Shown here one piece after another: positions 13,091 to 61,567 of a DNA stretch of 64,000 nucleotides. A program made the position numbers and the translations under genes. The notes under the pieces were generated by a model, which searched no databases, was not told the DNA's origin, and worked only from the letters and a program-made list of their open reading frames with translations. How positions within the stretch are numbered: position 1 is the first letter of the stretch; each line of letters opens with the position of its first letter. Source of the stretch: a bacterium OL-1 (GTDB taxonomy: Bacteria > Actinomycetota > Coriobacteriia > Coriobacteriales > Atopobiaceae); the NCBI GenBank assembly GCA_000752675.2, contig LM994625.1, positions 154,734 through 218,733 of the forward strand. Direction: 5' to 3'.

Positions 13091-14299
13091 ATGCAGCTGT
13101 CGCTTAACAAACAATCTGCGCTTCGAGCGCTCAGGGCAATCAGATGTGGAAAGATTCCGCAGGTTAATCGGCCCATAGCCCGCATGGCAAGGGCCCCTCT
13201 CCGCTCATCCCAACGTCCGGACGGCAGGAAGCGCTGGTCTCCAGCGGCCGCCCACCTTACCTGGCTGGGCATGCCCCAGCCAACCCAACGCGCACCGCTG
13301 CATGTTGCCGTACCGTCTGACCCCAGCCGCGTTCGCGCCCGTTTCTTCTCGTGCACTATCTACTCGGCCGGGCTTCCAGATGACGCGTTCCTGGACATTG
13401 GCAACGGAATCCAAGTTGCGTCGCCCGAGCTCCTGTTTGTCGAGCTCGCAACCGTGATGATTCCCCAGGTGCTGGTACTTCTCGGCTACGAGCTCACCGG
13501 AAGATACTCGCGTGACGCAGACAGTCCGAGGCTTGGCCCCATCACCTACGGAATACCACCGCTTACAACTGTCGAGAAAATCAAAAACTTCATCGCGCGA
13601 TGCCACGGCATTCCGGGGCTCTACTCTGCAAGGGAATGCATAAAGTATGTATCAGACAATTCATGGTCACCCACAGAATCGCTCATTGCCGCCATAGCCG
13701 CGCTCCCGATCGAGCGCCTGGGGTACGGAATTGGCACGCTCATCCTCAACGAGCGGTCGACCGCGCATGACGGCAACGCGCTTGGCAACGCAAAGGAGTC
13801 GCGAGTCCCGGACATGCGGGTGCCCGCTACGCCCGTTGGCATCAACTACGAAGGCGGCGGCCACCTTGAGCTGGACCGCATTGTCGCAGCCGCCATTGCA
13901 GCAACCGTGAATCCGGGCAACGTCCATCTGCAGGAAGAGGTTGCCGGCGAGAAGGACCATGTGCGCGAGAAGTACGTCGACGACGTGCGCCGGACGCGGG
14001 AGCTTGCATCGCGAGGCTTGGTTATTGTCAACGCCACGATGGAAGACCTGTTCGACAACCATGGCCTCGACACCCTTATGCAACAGGTCATGAGTGCCAC
14101 TGAGCGTTTCTCGAACCAAGACTTCTCCATGTGTCGGAAGGCCTTCGCCTCCCCCACCGTCTGCGCCAAGCGGCAGCTCCTCATTTGGGCGCTCCTCGAT
14201 TGGAAGCCCGGCATCGAGTACATGCGCCAATTCATGGCAAAGGAGTACTTGGAGCCGCGCCAGGCAATCGAGGGCCATGCCATTGAGTTTGTGCTCTAG
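13091..14299 (+). CDS. hypothetical protein, possible DUF559/Vsr-like nuclease fold at the C-terminus
   Basis: A 402-residue soluble protein that I do not recognise as a named family. The N-terminal 90 residues are basic and low in secondary structure. The middle (about 95-215, with IQVASPELLFVELATVMI) resembles the central domain of AbiEi-like Coriobacteriia proteins. The C-terminal third has a pattern reminiscent of Vsr/DUF559 endonucleases: NYEGGGHLELDRI, then an Asp/Arg helix (KYVDDVRRTRELASRG), then a hydrophobic strand (LVIVNATMEDLF). The active-site motif is not clear enough to claim catalysis. The gene stands alone, preceded by a palindrome-rich 980-base region and converging on a disrupted gene. 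The start ATG follows GAAGGCGAGTAGGTC. The stop TAG lies in a CTCTAGGGC repeat shared with the converging gene. Confidence 0.6.
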   Translation: MQLSLNKQSALRALRAIRCGKIPQVNRPIARMARAPLRSSQRPDGRKRWSPAAAHLTWLGMPQPTQRAPLHVAVPSDPSRVRARFFSCTIYSAGLPDDAFLDIGNGIQVASPELLFVELATVMIPQVLVLLGYELTGRYSRDADSPRLGPITYGIPPLTTVEKIKNFIARCHGIPGLYSARECIKYVSDNSWSPTESLIAAIAALPIERLGYGIGTLILNERSTAHDGNALGNAKESRVPDMRVPATPVGINYEGGGHLELDRIVAAAIAATVNPGNVHLQEEVAGEKDHVREKYVDDVRRTRELASRGLVIVNATMEDLFDNHGLDTLMQQVMSATERFSNQDFSMCRKAFASPTVCAKRQLLIWALLDWKPGIEYMRQFMAKEYLEPRQAIEGHAIEFVL

Positions 14300-14390
14300 G
14301 GCAGCCGCGCCCGAACGGCCCTAGAGCCCTGCCTACCGCAGAGCCCGACGGCCCTAGAGCCGCGGCCTTCCCCGGCCGGCCCTAGAGCAC
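14291..14390. repeat. four copies of GGCCCTAGAGC at the meeting point of convergent genes
   Basis: GTGCTCTAGGGC (14291) is inverted relative to three copies of GGCCCTAGAGC (about 14317, 14350 and 14378). The first and last form an inverted repeat that could act as a bidirectional terminator. The TAG stop codons of both flanking genes lie inside the arms. Confidence 0.6.
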
Positions 14391-15479
14391 GCCAAGGCCC
14401 TTGGCCACGATGAAGATGAAGTCCTGCACGTTGGTGACAATCGTCTTTGCCGAGAGGCTCCCCCGATCGTGCAGCTTGTTGACGACAAACTCAGAGGCGT
14501 CCACGGCATAGATGTAGACCGGCCGCACGGTGCCGTCATCGTCGACGTGATAGCTGGGCGTGATGTTGCCGGTCGCAATTGTGTGCAGCATCGTAGCCAT
14601 GCAGATGACCGTCGTAGCCTTGCGCGCGAGCACACGGATCTGGTGCTGGGACTCGTACACGTCCGCGATGGTCTCGGGCAGCGGTCCGTCATCGCGAATC
14701 GACCCCGCCAGCAGAAAGGGGATGTTCTTCTTCACGCACGCGTACATGATGCCGTCGTGCAGGTCGTAGTCATCAACAAATTGCGCAATCGAGCCGGACC
14801 GTCGCACGCGGTTGATGGTGTCAAGGTGGTTGTAGTGGCCGTTTGGCATGCTCTGCTGCGTGCGAATGTCCTGGCCAAGCGCCGTGTGGAACATGGCGCC
14901 CTCGAGGTCGTGCGTGGCAAGGGCGTTGCCGCCAGAGAGCGCGCCCACGTAGCCCTCCTCGACCAGCCGCTGCATGGCGTGACGAGAATCCGCGTCAAAC
15001 GCAAACGCCGGGCCCATCACCCACTCGATGAACCCGTGGTCGCGCTCGTATTTCAGCAGTTCGATAAGGTCATCGTAGTCTCGCGTGTAGGCGGTCTCGC
15101 GGCTGCGGCCCTGGCGGAAGGAGAACTTCTCGCCGTTGGACGCAGTAGGATCGTCGAAGCCGTCCGTGTGGACGTAGATTCCCTCGGAGCCGTCCTCGCT
15201 TCGCCCTAGCGCGACAAGGTCCCCCTGCTTGAGGTGGCGACCCGTGACCACGTGGAGGGTGCCGTCGTCTCTTAGAACGATGCAGGCATCCATGCGAGAA
15301 GAGGACGCCAGCCTCCAGCTGCCATCAATCTTGAAATACTACGGGTACATTGACGTGCTATGGAATCCCTCGGGTATCACGCCGTTCTGCTCGACGGTCC
15401 CCCACCTCACGTTGGGTGCGTCGTCCAAGCCGAGCGCAGAGAAATCAGGGTGGTGATAGACCGGCGGCTGGAACGCCAT
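14382..15479 (-). pseudogene. LOR/SDH-family protein (TIGR00300-like) interrupted by an in-frame TAG
   Basis: Homologue of the LOR/SDH bifunctional-domain family, which includes archaeal-type ornithine cyclodeaminases. Recognisable family blocks are GYVGALSGGNALATHDLEGA, FLLAGSIRDDGPLPETIADV and MLHTIATGNITPSYH. The gene has a good start: ATG at 15479 with GAGGGGAG upstream. It reads MAFQPPVYHHPDF to HSTSMYP, meets TAG at 15339-15341, and continues in the same frame with YFKIDGSWRLASSSRMDACIV. By my recall of the family, this matches its normal sequence on both sides of the TAG without a gap. The next ATG (15293) has only a poor ribosome site and would make a 303-residue fragment. The N-terminal ~80 residues of longer relatives are also absent. 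A nonsense mutation is the simplest reading; amber read-through is possible but unsupported. Confidence 0.75.
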
Positions 15480-15715
15480 GGTTGCTCCCCTCTCGTCGAT
15501 GCGTTGGATATAGCACGCGCGGGCTTGCCGCATAGCAGCGCGTGGCGCATGGCAACAAACTTGACCCAGCGGGATAGCACGACGAAAACATGGGACCCGC
15601 GAGAGCCGCCGCACCGGCGATGGGCCGCGGGAACAGCGAGGAGCCGACGCACCGGCGCATGCGTATACTTCTCGCGGGACCAAATGCTCTCACAAGGCCA
15701 CCGAGAGGAGCAGAC

Positions 15716-16324
15716 GTGAAGACCTACAGCTTTAGCGCGCCAATCGAGAAGGTCGAGGGCATCGACGGCGCATTCGTGCGGGTGCCGCTCGACGTGCCGC
15801 GAGTGTTTGGCGCCGGGCGAATCAAGGTGCACGCAACCTTTGATGGCGCGCCCTACGACGGAAGCGTAGTTGCGTTCAAGCGCGACGACGGCGGGCGCGA
15901 CTACGTGCTGGGCATTCGCAAGGACATCCGCGCTGCCATTGGCAAGGGGCCGGGCGAGGGCGTGGATGTCACGCTCGTCTGTGCGCAGGTGGACGGGCCG
16001 GCCAAGCGCTACGTTGACCTTCTCGCCGCCAAGGTTGAGCGCAAGGGTCGGAGCCGAGAGGAGCTGTGCGCCGTAATTGAGTGGCTTCTCGGCTACGCTC
16101 CCGAGAAGCTTTGCGACAGCCGCCTGAAGGCGGTGAGCTTTACCGACTGGCTTGATAACGCGCCGGCGTACAATCCCGCGGCGGCACTGGTGAGCGGCAA
16201 GGTCTGCGGCATTGACGTGGCAGCGGTGGAGGACCCCACCATGCACCGGGTGCGCGTGCTTGACAAGCTGGTGGACGAGCTGGCCAAGGGACGTCCACTC
16301 GAGAAAATCCTCCGGCAGGGGTGA
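15716..16324 (+). CDS. DUF1905-DUF2200 fusion protein
   Basis: Small soluble protein (202 residues) made of two conserved domains of unknown function. The N-terminal ~95 residues match the DUF1905 beta-barrel pattern (YSFSAPIEKVEGIDGAFVRV, then DYVLGIRKDIRAAIGKG). The C-terminal ~100 match DUF2200 (KGRSREELCAVIEWLLGY, SGKVCGIDV, VRVLDKLVDELAKGRPLEKI). The start is GTG at 15716 with GAGAGGAG seven bases upstream; upstream in-frame ATG codons lack a ribosome site. It converges on the ArsC-like gene across a hairpin terminator. Function cannot be assigned. Confidence 0.85.
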   Translation: MKTYSFSAPIEKVEGIDGAFVRVPLDVPRVFGAGRIKVHATFDGAPYDGSVVAFKRDDGGRDYVLGIRKDIRAAIGKGPGEGVDVTLVCAQVDGPAKRYVDLLAAKVERKGRSREELCAVIEWLLGYAPEKLCDSRLKAVSFTDWLDNAPAYNPAAALVSGKVCGIDVAAVEDPTMHRVRVLDKLVDELAKGRPLEKILRQG

Positions 16325-16760: not shown

Positions 16761-16791
16761 ATGAGACAAAGGGACTGTCCCTTTGTCTCAT
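16761..16791. repeat. ATGAGACAAAGGGAC palindrome, copy 2
   Basis: Perfect 31-base palindrome with a central T. It lies between two minus-strand genes and supplies the TGA stop codon (16788-16790) of the JetD-like gene. Confidence 0.9.
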
Positions 16792-18305
16792 AGGTCGCGG
16801 CGGGTGAGGATCTCCTGCGGGATCAGGCGGCAGCCCTCCACAACGCTGCGCGCATAGGCGGCAGCCTCCTCGGTGAGGTCATCGCACATGAGCGACATGT
16901 CCGGCATGCCAAGGTTCACCTGGCAGGTCTGCTCGTTGTCAGCGGGATCCGGATAGCGCTCCTGAGCCTTGTCAATCATGAGCTGGTAGGCGGGGGTGAA
17001 GGGCGCAAAGGGGTAGTGCTCGCCCAAAACGTCACGCAGACGCACCATGATGTCGATGCCCGCGCGGTCGATGTCGCCCCAGTAGAGGACCTCAACGGAG
17101 TCTGCGCCCAGCGTGTCAAGGAGCAGCGCAAGGCGGTTGTGCTCGAGGATGGGCGTGCCCCCGCCCAGCACCACGGCATGGATGCGCTCGCCCAGGATGG
17201 TTGTGCGACCCTCCTCGTACATGAGGTCGTGCACGTCAAGCCAGGGATCGAGGTTCTCGGTCACCAGCACGCGCATGTGCTTCCTGCGACGCGGCGCGTG
17301 GTAGAGAAGGTCAGGCTTGGGCATGGGCCGGTGGCGGATGACGTCCTCCATGCCCATCGCACGCAGCAGCTTGTGGCCGTCGGAGCCGTACTCAAAGAAC
17401 TTCTCGTCGCCGCCCATCTGGTAGGCAAGCTGACGACGCGTGATGTCACCGGGGAGCGCACCGTTTACCAGGGCGTCATTGATGGCCGTGAGCTGGCGCT
17501 CGAAGAGCGTGTACGCGCCGGGGTGGCTGAGAAGCCAACCGTTCATCCAGAAGCGCTGGTCAAGCTCGAGGATCTTTGCGCGCACCTCGGTCTCGGCGGG
17601 GCCGCCGCGGCGGACGTAGGGAACCTCGGAGAGCTGCGTGGGATGAGAGGGACTGCCCTTCCCCACCCGGCGCAGGCGTCCGCGCTGGGTGCGCGGGGCG
17701 GAGGAGCGACCGGGCTTCTCGACACGCGCGGGGGGCGCGGGCTGTGCGGCATCACCGGGCTGTGCAGATGCTTCGGGCACCTGAGCGTCGCCGGGCTTCG
17801 AGGCGTCGGCGGGCGTGGGGTCCGTCGCAGCGGCGGGCTCCTCGGCTGCAGTGGTACCGTCCGCAGCGGCGGGGTCCTCGGCTGCAGTGGTACCGTCCGC
17901 AGCGGCAGGCTCCTCGACCGTCTCGGAAGTATCGACGACCTCGGGCGCGGGCTCGTTCTCGTCCACAGCGCCAGCCGTGCCCGCGTCGCCCTCGGCCTTC
18001 TCGCCAGCGCCGTCAGCGCCCTCCACCTGCGACGGAACGCGCAGCGTGTAGACGCCCTCCTGCCCCTCCACGGGGTCGAGCGCCTCAGAGCACACCGCCG
18101 CAGTCAGCGCTACCTGGGCTTCCTTGCCATACTTGCCCACGATTCGCTTGATGTCCTCGTCGGTCACAACGTCGCCCCGCACGCGCACCAGCGCGCTCGC
18201 CACGGACGCAGCCTTGTTCTTCTGCGAGGGCTCCAGAACTTGGCAGAGGGTCTCCCTCAGATAATCAAGATTCATACGTTCCACGTCGGTCAGTTTTCGC
18301 GCCAT
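16788..18305 (-). CDS. solitary JetD-like protein (DUF2220/TOPRIM-type)
   Basis: Protein of 505 residues in three parts. The N-terminal ~95 residues form a small helical domain beginning KLTDVERMNLDYLRETLCQV. Residues ~95-215 are Pro/Ala/Glu-rich and presumably disordered, including a 12-residue tandem repeat. The C-terminal ~280 residues resemble the JetD nuclease subunit of Wadjet: VEVLYWGDIDRAGIDIMVRL is the characteristic WGDID block of its TOPRIM-like domain, followed by YPFAPFTPAYQLMIDKA. In Wadjet, JetD cleaves DNA loaded by the JetABC condensin complex. No jetA, jetB or jetC genes flank this copy, so it is either an orphan or does something else. The stop codon lies inside a palindromic repeat. 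Confidence 0.8.
   Translation of the reverse strand: MARKLTDVERMNLDYLRETLCQVLEPSQKNKAASVASALVRVRGDVVTDEDIKRIVGKYGKEAQVALTAAVCSEALDPVEGQEGVYTLRVPSQVEGADGAGEKAEGDAGTAGAVDENEPAPEVVDTSETVEEPAAADGTTAAEDPAAADGTTAAEEPAAATDPTPADASKPGDAQVPEASAQPGDAAQPAPPARVEKPGRSSAPRTQRGRLRRVGKGSPSHPTQLSEVPYVRRGGPAETEVRAKILELDQRFWMNGWLLSHPGAYTLFERQLTAINDALVNGALPGDITRRQLAYQMGGDEKFFEYGSDGHKLLRAMGMEDVIRHRPMPKPDLLYHAPRRRKHMRVLVTENLDPWLDVHDLMYEEGRTTILGERIHAVVLGGGTPILEHNRLALLLDTLGADSVEVLYWGDIDRAGIDIMVRLRDVLGEHYPFAPFTPAYQLMIDKAQERYPDPADNEQTCQVNLGMPDMSLMCDDLTEEAAAYARSVVEGCRLIPQEILTRRDL
17827..17916. repeat. 36-bp in-frame tandem repeat, 2.5 copies
   Basis: Units at 17827-17862, 17863-17898 and a partial copy at 17899-17916 differ by one or two bases. 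They encode the repeated EPAAADGTTAAE in the linker of the JetD-like protein, a candidate for length variation between strains. Confidence 0.85.
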
Positions 18306-47062: not shown

Positions 47063-47440
47063 TTACTCGTCCATGCCAGGACGCCGGCGCAGATGCTTCA
47101 CCGCCGCACGTCTACCCTTCTCTTCAAGGCGACGACGCACAGATGCCCTGGTGGGCTTGGTAGCATGGCGCTTTTTTGGCCGACGCGAACGCCGAAGCAG
47201 CTCTGCGTGGATCTTCTCTAGGCAGCGTTCCCGATTCTGGAGCTGGCTGCGAGATTCCCTGCTTACAACAATAATTCCAGTAGGCATGTGACGCATGCGC
47301 ACGGCAGAGTCGGTGGTGTTAACACCCTGTCCTCCCGGGCCAGTGGCACGAAACGCCTCCGCTTCACACTGGCGGGCGAGCTCCGCCAGGCTCAGCCGCG
47401 CAAAACTGGCGTAATCCTGGTATGTGAGTCTCTTGTCCAT
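47063..47440 (-). CDS. peptide chain release factor-like protein (ArfB type)
   Basis: Small protein of 125 residues with the release factor GGQ domain: [20 protein letters not shown] contains the catalytic GGQ that hydrolyses peptidyl-tRNA. The C-terminus ([20 protein letters not shown]) is highly basic, like the ArfB/YaeJ tail that enters the empty mRNA channel of stalled ribosomes. No codon-recognition domain is present. The role is therefore ribosome rescue, by homology. Start ATG 47440 follows TAAGGTTGGCTT. Confidence 0.9.
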
Positions 47441-60829: not shown

Positions 60830-61567
60830 TCACAGCGCGTAGCAGTCGTAGCGTATGGCCTTGCCGGCCACGGTGTAGCTGGGCTTCTCTCCAGCAAGCC
60901 ATGGTCCCTTGGCCGGACGCTTCACCACAATGCGGCGAGGGCCCGCAGCCCGAGCGGCGTCCATGAGGCCGCGCTCGTCGTCACACGGCCGCTCCAGGCG
61001 TTGAATGAGCTGCAGCTTCTTCTTGACGGCCGCGCTCTTGCGGCGCTCGGGAAACATGGGGTCGAGAAGGACCACGTCAGGCGAGAAGCCCAGCGCGGGA
61101 AGCGCCGGCACGGAGTCCTCGCCGCGAAGCTCCATGCGTGAGACCGCCTCCGCCAGCGCCGGGTCCGCCGCCGCACGTGCCAGGGCGTCGCCCAGAAGCG
61201 CGCAGATCACGGGGTCGCGCTCGAAGAGCGTCACCGAGAAGCCCGCCGCAGCCAAAAGCAGCGAGTCCTCCCCCATCCCGGCCGTCGCGTCCACAGCCGT
61301 GAGCGGACCGGCCGCCCCGCGAATGCGTGCCGCGCGCACCACCAGCTCGCGGTTGAGGTTGCCCGCGCGAAGGCGCGGCACCATGCGTGAGAGGTCCGCG
61401 GCAAGCGACATGCCGTCACCCTCGAGCGAGAGACCCTTCTCGCCCACAAGAAGGCACAGCCCACCCACAGCAGCACTGGTACCCACGGGCACGCCGAGGC
61501 GCACCGCAAGCTCCTGCGCCCGCGCCGCATCCCCTCCTGCGCCAACCTCTACAACCAGGCCCTCCAC
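60830..61567 (-). CDS. rsmJ: 16S rRNA (guanine1516-N2)-methyltransferase-like protein
   Basis: SAM-dependent methyltransferase of 245 residues, RsmJ family. SAM-binding motif I is TAVDATAGMGEDSLLLAAAG and motif II FSVTLFERDP. The family-specific catalytic block is VVLLDPMFPERRKSAAVKKK, followed by RIVVKRPAKGPWL. The start is GTG at 61567, six bases after the ABC ATPase stop, with GGGGCGTAG upstream. Target nucleotide inferred from the family. Confidence 0.9.
   Translation of the reverse strand: MEGLVVEVGAGGDAARAQELAVRLGVPVGTSAAVGGLCLLVGEKGLSLEGDGMSLAADLSRMVPRLRAGNLNRELVVRAARIRGAAGPLTAVDATAGMGEDSLLLAAAGFSVTLFERDPVICALLGDALARAAADPALAEAVSRMELRGEDSVPALPALGFSPDVVLLDPMFPERRKSAAVKKKLQLIQRLERPCDDERGLMDAARAAGPRRIVVKRPAKGPWLAGEKPSYTVAGKAIRYDCYAL

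What the first reader, a model, noticed from the sequence alone, without database searches (positions are those of the whole stretch)
14382..15479. In-frame amber codon inside an otherwise intact LOR/SDH-family gene
The frame has a good ribosome site and start at 15479, reads normally to TAG at 15339-15341, and continues in frame with recognisable family sequence to a normal stop. The TAG replaces one residue without frameshift or indel. It is either a recent nonsense mutation, a sequencing error, suppressor-dependent expression, or programmed read-through giving 303- and about 365-residue products.
Basis: partly seen in the sequence, partly recalled or inferred. Interest (0 to 1): 0.58.

Follow-up and report, generated by a model that had tools for sequence, protein, structure and literature searches.

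The report
Recent stop mutation in enzyme gene
A gut bacterium's ornithine-processing enzyme gene carries one early stop codon where its sister species have an ordinary amino acid; this is most likely a recent knockout mutation (or a sequencing error), not a new way of reading the genetic code.

Summary
In detail: on the minus strand a 365-codon frame (15479-14382) is interrupted only by TAG at 15341-15339, codon 47. Read with X there, it is a full-length member of NF052526, putative nickel-pincer-nucleotide (NPN) dependent ornithine cyclodeaminase, in a genome near Tractidigestivibacter. All six sister copies and 80 of 80 database relatives have glutamate there. No read-through or suppression system was found: no relative has the TAG, none of 46 tRNA matches has an amber anticodon, PylS was not found, RF1 is present, TAG is the commonest stop in the window and ends this gene too. 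The rest of the gene still looks selected (own-lineage missense:synonymous 3:8 or 4:24; neutral 2.4-3.2), so the lesion is young. Restart at Met63 would remove three predicted strands and several invariant residues. Best explanation: a recent inactivating nonsense allele, in a genus where the gene has also decayed in one sister and is not found in another. Sequencing error is the main rival. An ordinary result.

The parts
15485..15491 (-). Shine-Dalgarno-like AGGGGAG, 5 bases before the start codon
   Evidence: the GGAGCA stretch is kept in the 6 aligned sisters
15342..15479 (-). N-terminal 46 codons of the interrupted ODC_var gene
   Evidence: NF052526 positions 1-46, E 1.8e-11
15339..15341 (-). 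in-frame TAG, codon 47; glutamate codon in all relatives examined
   Evidence: E in 80 of 80 loci and in 6 of 6 sister genomes
14382..15338 (-). rest of the ODC_var frame (318 codons plus final TAG at 14384-14382)
   Evidence: NF052526 E 1.9e-161 and Pfam PF21570 E 1.8e-64
14382..15293 (-). possible restart ORF from Met63, 303 aa, lacking part of the N-terminal domain
   Evidence: invariant P36, H40, P46, E47, W55, S61, R62 lie before it; predicted strands 25-28, 47-51, 54-57 lie before it
14293..14386 (-). ARAGORN 'tRNA-???(ctag)' call, judged a chance hit in the G+C-rich intergenic region; not a suppressor tRNA
   Evidence: not among the 46 RF00005 matches; 0 of 6 sisters have it

Best explanation
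This is a formerly normal gene for a putative NPN-dependent ornithine cyclodeaminase (ornithine to proline plus ammonia) that acquired a nonsense mutation at codon 47 very recently in this species or strain. Translation should stop after 46 residues and leave no working enzyme. Shown: the stop, its absence from all relatives examined, the otherwise selected sequence, no amber-suppressing apparatus detected. Inferred: loss of product; that the mutation is real and not a read error.
For: Sister copies in 6 of 6 genomes have a glutamate codon there and so do 80 of 80 loci from the genome collection. Of 48 genomes with a match among 140 of the family, stops inside are reported only for this one (TAG) and for G003 (TGA). 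Own-lineage changes: 8 synonymous, 3 missense, 1 nonsense against four sisters; 24 synonymous, 4 missense against two; neutral missense:synonymous would be 2.4-3.2, so the neutral part of the branch is at most about 0.51 (first set) or 0.14 (second set). The gene is expendable in the genus: G003's copy has indels, a TGA and 23 missense plus 1 nonsense to 19 synonymous private changes; G006 has no match. RF1 present, no PylS found, no CTA anticodon among 46 tRNA matches.
Against: The cofactor genes LarC and LarE are intact here and LarA is not detected, so this gene may be the only NPN client, which could hint that it still works; but G003 keeps LarC and LarE as well although its copy is plainly decayed. 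No transcript or protein data. No second strain of the species could be compared. Reaching TAG from the sisters' GAA needs two base changes. The rest of the gene shows no relaxed selection yet, which also fits an error or an expressed gene.
Confidence: 0.76

Rival explanations
1. Sequencing or assembly error: the real genome has a sense codon and the gene is intact.
For: The frame is otherwise intact and selected, and LarC and LarE are intact. One wrong base next to a silent difference would suffice.
Against: Assembly of good quality (10 contigs, 99.34% complete). Of 24 window rows supported by G002 with dN/dS below 0.25, no other has an internal stop within its own coding frame.
Confidence: 0.16
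2. Translation restarts at Met63 (15293) and a 303-aa partly functional product is made.
For: Met63 is in frame 16 codons after the stop; the Rossmann-like C-terminal part is whole.
Against: The only GGAGG-like stretch lies about 18 bases upstream, too far for a usual site. The product would lack predicted strands 25-28, 47-51 and 54-57 and invariant residues P36, H40, P46, E47, W55, S61, R62.
Confidence: 0.04
3. UAG is read through (suppressor tRNA, pyrrolysine, or programmed read-through) to give the full-length enzyme.
For: The sequence after the stop still looks selected; the cofactor genes are kept; ARAGORN called a 'ctag' tRNA-like hairpin just downstream.
Against: No CTA anticodon in 46 of 46 tRNA matches; no PylS, only PheS and a weak match in an 831-codon frame; RF1 present; TAG ends 12 of 20 sister-supported window rows with a shared end, this gene among them; the TAG is in no relative; no unusual RNA structure after it (z -0.34); the 'ctag' hit is not in the RF00005 list, overlaps the gene's final stop and is absent from 6 of 6 sisters.
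Confidence: 0.04

Closest known systems
NF052526 ODC_var, putative NPN-dependent ornithine cyclodeaminase (NCBIfam)
   Same: Whole-length match, 597.7 bits against a cut-off of 440, positions 1-362 of 364; single copy in the genome.
   Different: Here codon 47 is TAG; 80 of 80 relatives have glutamate.
AgrE / ArgZ C-terminal ornithine cyclodeaminase part (PDB 6lrf, 6lrg, 6lrh, 6juy) and 3c2q
   Same: Sequence similarity at E 3e-54 to 1e-51 and the best structural matches of the model made from a sister protein.
   Different: No arginine dihydrolase domain; about a third of residues identical; threonine instead of glutamate at the codon-47 position.
Decayed copy in sister genome G003 (L008/L046)
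   Same: Same gene, also inactivated.
   Different: Indels plus a TGA and many missense changes: an older pseudogene; sense codon at 47.
Amber recoding (pyrrolysine system, suppressor tRNA)
   Same: An in-frame UAG with conserved sequence on both sides.
   Different: No tRNA or synthetase for it was found, and no relative has the codon.

Membership tests
NF052526 ODC_var | score over the curated cut-off along the whole model | tested here: met
   597.7 bits against 440, with X at codon 47
NF052526 ODC_var | an uninterrupted reading frame giving the enzyme | tested here: not met
   TAG at codon 47
NF052526 ODC_var | NPN cofactor genes in the same genome | tested here: met
   LarC and LarE found, no stops inside; LarB not searched
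NF052526 ODC_var | ornithine cyclodeaminase activity | not testable with these tools
   the model's own name says putative; no assay
Pyrrolysine / amber suppression | tRNA with CUA anticodon | tested here: not met
   none among the 46 RF00005 matches by ARAGORN; a tRNA too odd for RF00005 elsewhere in the genome would be missed
Pyrrolysine / amber suppression | PylS or other dedicated synthetase | tested here: not met
   PF01409: PheS and one weak match in an 831-codon frame only; the names PheS and PheT are recalled, not from a call
Programmed stop read-through | stop codon and context kept across relatives | tested here: not met
   sense codon in 80 of 80 loci and 6 of 6 sisters
Programmed stop read-through | downstream RNA structure | tested here: not met
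   z -0.34 over 120 bases; three sisters -0.90, -0.06, 1.03
Pseudogene | lesion absent from functional relatives | tested here: met
Pseudogene | relaxed selection after the lesion | tested here: inconclusive
   none seen: 3:8 or 4:24 missense:synonymous, which fits only a young lesion; the method does see relaxation in G003

The most novel reading that the evidence does not exclude
UAG at codon 47 is translated at a useful level in this one species by near-cognate reading or an undetected tRNA, so that a low, possibly regulated amount of NPN-dependent ornithine cyclodeaminase is still made; this would explain why the rest of the gene and the cofactor genes are unchanged.
Probability: 0.04. Interest if true: 0.55.

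Novelty: already known. Interest (0 to 1): 0.12.

Why it matters
As recoding it would have been notable; as a young nonsense allele it is the ordinary way genes begin to be lost. The useful by-product is support for the NPN link: in 140 genomes of the family 47 of 48 with ODC_var also have LarC, against 32 of 92 without it, and 27 of those 47 have no LarA over the Pfam cut-off. The genus offers a natural series for loss of this enzyme: intact in five genomes, a fresh stop in one, decayed in one, no match in one.

Tried and rejected
The ARAGORN 'ctag' tRNA (14293-14386) looked like a suppressor tRNA next to an amber codon. Rejected: it overlaps the gene's stop codon, has a four-base anticodon and a long variable arm, is not among the RF00005 matches and is in none of six sisters.

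A lone low-scoring tRNA-Gln (L137) was checked as a possible amber reader; its anticodon is CTG.

A first count of interrupted genes in the window was swamped by antisense open frames of this G+C-rich genome. It was repeated with a dN/dS filter: 24 of 40 G002 rows and 15 of 29 G001 rows kept, the others dropped. In the kept rows the only other internal stop, a TGA at 61002, lies just before the window's own start codon at 61005.

Papers: 0 hold both 'nickel-pincer nucleotide' and 'ornithine cyclodeaminase', and 0 hold 'nickel-pincer', 'LarA' and 'ornithine'. Passages of PMC8262935 were read for AgrE; the AgrE structure paper is not held. The other papers were seen only as search listings with the starts of their abstracts. 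Plasmid records have no match.

Full report
What is there. On the minus strand an ATG at 15479 with a Shine-Dalgarno-like AGGGGAG opens a frame that meets TAG at 15341-15339 (codon 47) and then continues, without indel or other stop, to TAG at 14384-14382. The two parts match consecutive positions of one family: residues 1-46 hit NF052526 positions 1-46 and the remainder positions 48-362; with X at the stop the score is 597.7 bits against a cut-off of 440. NF052526 is named a putative nickel-pincer-nucleotide (NPN) dependent ornithine cyclodeaminase. The nearest solved relatives are 3c2q and the C-terminal parts of ArgZ and AgrE. PMC8262935 (passages read) describes AgrE as making proline from arginine through ornithine.

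Where it is. The window is part of a 2.46 Mb genome in 10 contigs, 99.34% complete. The nearest named relatives of the gene are Tractidigestivibacter scatoligenes (97%) and T. montrealensis (96%), so the genus is probably Tractidigestivibacter; the source genome itself is unnamed.

Relatives. Of the eight genomes of the genus held, including this one, seven have the gene. The five uninterrupted sisters align over all 1098 bases without gaps; all six sister copies have GAA at codon 47. In the genome collection 106 stretches encode a relative and 80 were kept; all 80 have glutamate there, 45 GAA and 35 GAG, and only L046 (the G003 copy) has a stop inside its match. Several of these 80 are the same genus genomes again. 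In 140 genomes of the family 48 have a match, and a stop inside is reported only for this genome and for G003; several of the others are partial matches. Glutamate 47 is therefore invariant in this subfamily, although the AgrE/ArgZ relatives have threonine.

How old. Private changes of this copy against four sisters are 8 synonymous, 3 missense and the nonsense change; the sisters have 18:3, 29:5, 22:5 and 31:7 synonymous:nonsynonymous. Pairwise dN/dS to the five intact sisters is 0.035-0.059. Against G001 and G002 only, the count is 24 synonymous to 4 missense plus two base changes in the stop codon, a ratio of 0.17; eleven neighbouring genes give 0.10 to 0.53 in nine, and 0.80 and 1.00 in two with few changes; three of the 15 genes tried had no orthologue in both sister stretches. 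Neutral change would give a missense:synonymous ratio of 2.4-3.2. Treating the branch as part selected and part neutral, the neutral part is at most about 0.37-0.51 (first count) or 0.08-0.14 (second count). The G003 copy, as a positive control, shows 23 missense and one nonsense to 19 synonymous private changes plus indels: the test does see decay. So the stop is young, or is not real, or does not inactivate.

Is UAG read here? All evidence found is against it. TAG is the commonest stop: 12 of the 20 G002-supported window rows with a shared end (24 rows, 4 without a shared end). The gene's own final stop is TAG. RF1 is present. PF01409 finds one strong match, taken to be PheS, and one weak match in an 831-codon frame, taken from general knowledge to be PheT; no PylS. 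None of the 46 tRNA matches has a CTA anticodon, though ARAGORN was run only on those loci and on the window. The tRNA-like hit just downstream is a chance call. RNA after the stop folds no better than shuffles.

What product remains. The model of the intact T. scatoligenes protein (mean pLDDT 85.7) has a beta-rich N-terminal part (strands between 25 and 103) and a mixed helix-strand C-terminal part that Pfam calls a Rossmann fold. Codon 47 begins the second strand. A restart at Met63 would remove strands 25-28, 47-51 and 54-57 and the invariant residues P36, H40, P46, E47, W55, S61 and R62, and has no well-placed ribosome site. A working enzyme from it is unlikely.

NPN context. LarC and LarE are found without stops in seven of eight genus genomes, including this one and G003, and not (over cut-off) in G006, which has no ODC_var either; LarA (Lar_N) is in none of the eight. 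In the family 47 of 48 ODC_var genomes have LarC against 32 of 92 others (Fisher 9e-15, not corrected for relatedness), and 27 of those 47 have no Lar_N over the cut-off. This supports NPN dependence of ODC_var. It also means that here the cofactor genes have outlived their only recognised client, as in G003; 23 of the family's 79 LarC genomes have neither recognised client, so other clients may exist.

Verdict. A recent nonsense allele is the best reading (0.76), a sequence error next (0.16); read-through and functional restart are each about 0.04. The finding is real as sequence but ordinary as biology.

Noticed in passing
window 47063-47440 (-): 125-aa release-factor-like protein (RF2 model E 3.3e-22, ArfB model E 3e-21, both under their cut-offs): a possible ribosome-rescue hydrolase of ArfB kind.
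   Followed up: partly
window 15590-16324 (+): One ORF joins DUF1905 and DUF2200 domains, divergent from the interrupted gene.
   Followed up: no
window 16788-18305 (-): 505-aa protein with a weak match to Wadjet JetD C-terminal domain (27.4 bits, cut-off 22).
   Followed up: no
family genomes: ODC_var and LarC co-occur (47 of 48), while 23 genomes with LarC have neither ODC_var nor LarA over cut-off: further NPN clients may be undiscovered.
   Followed up: partly
G070:C86:18080-19384: A LarC gene with one in-frame TAG in another genome of the family (8% contamination, second LarC piece elsewhere).
   Followed up: no
L137 (G000:C2:202823-202896): A lone, low-scoring second tRNA-Gln(CTG) with an unusual shape.
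   Followed up: partly
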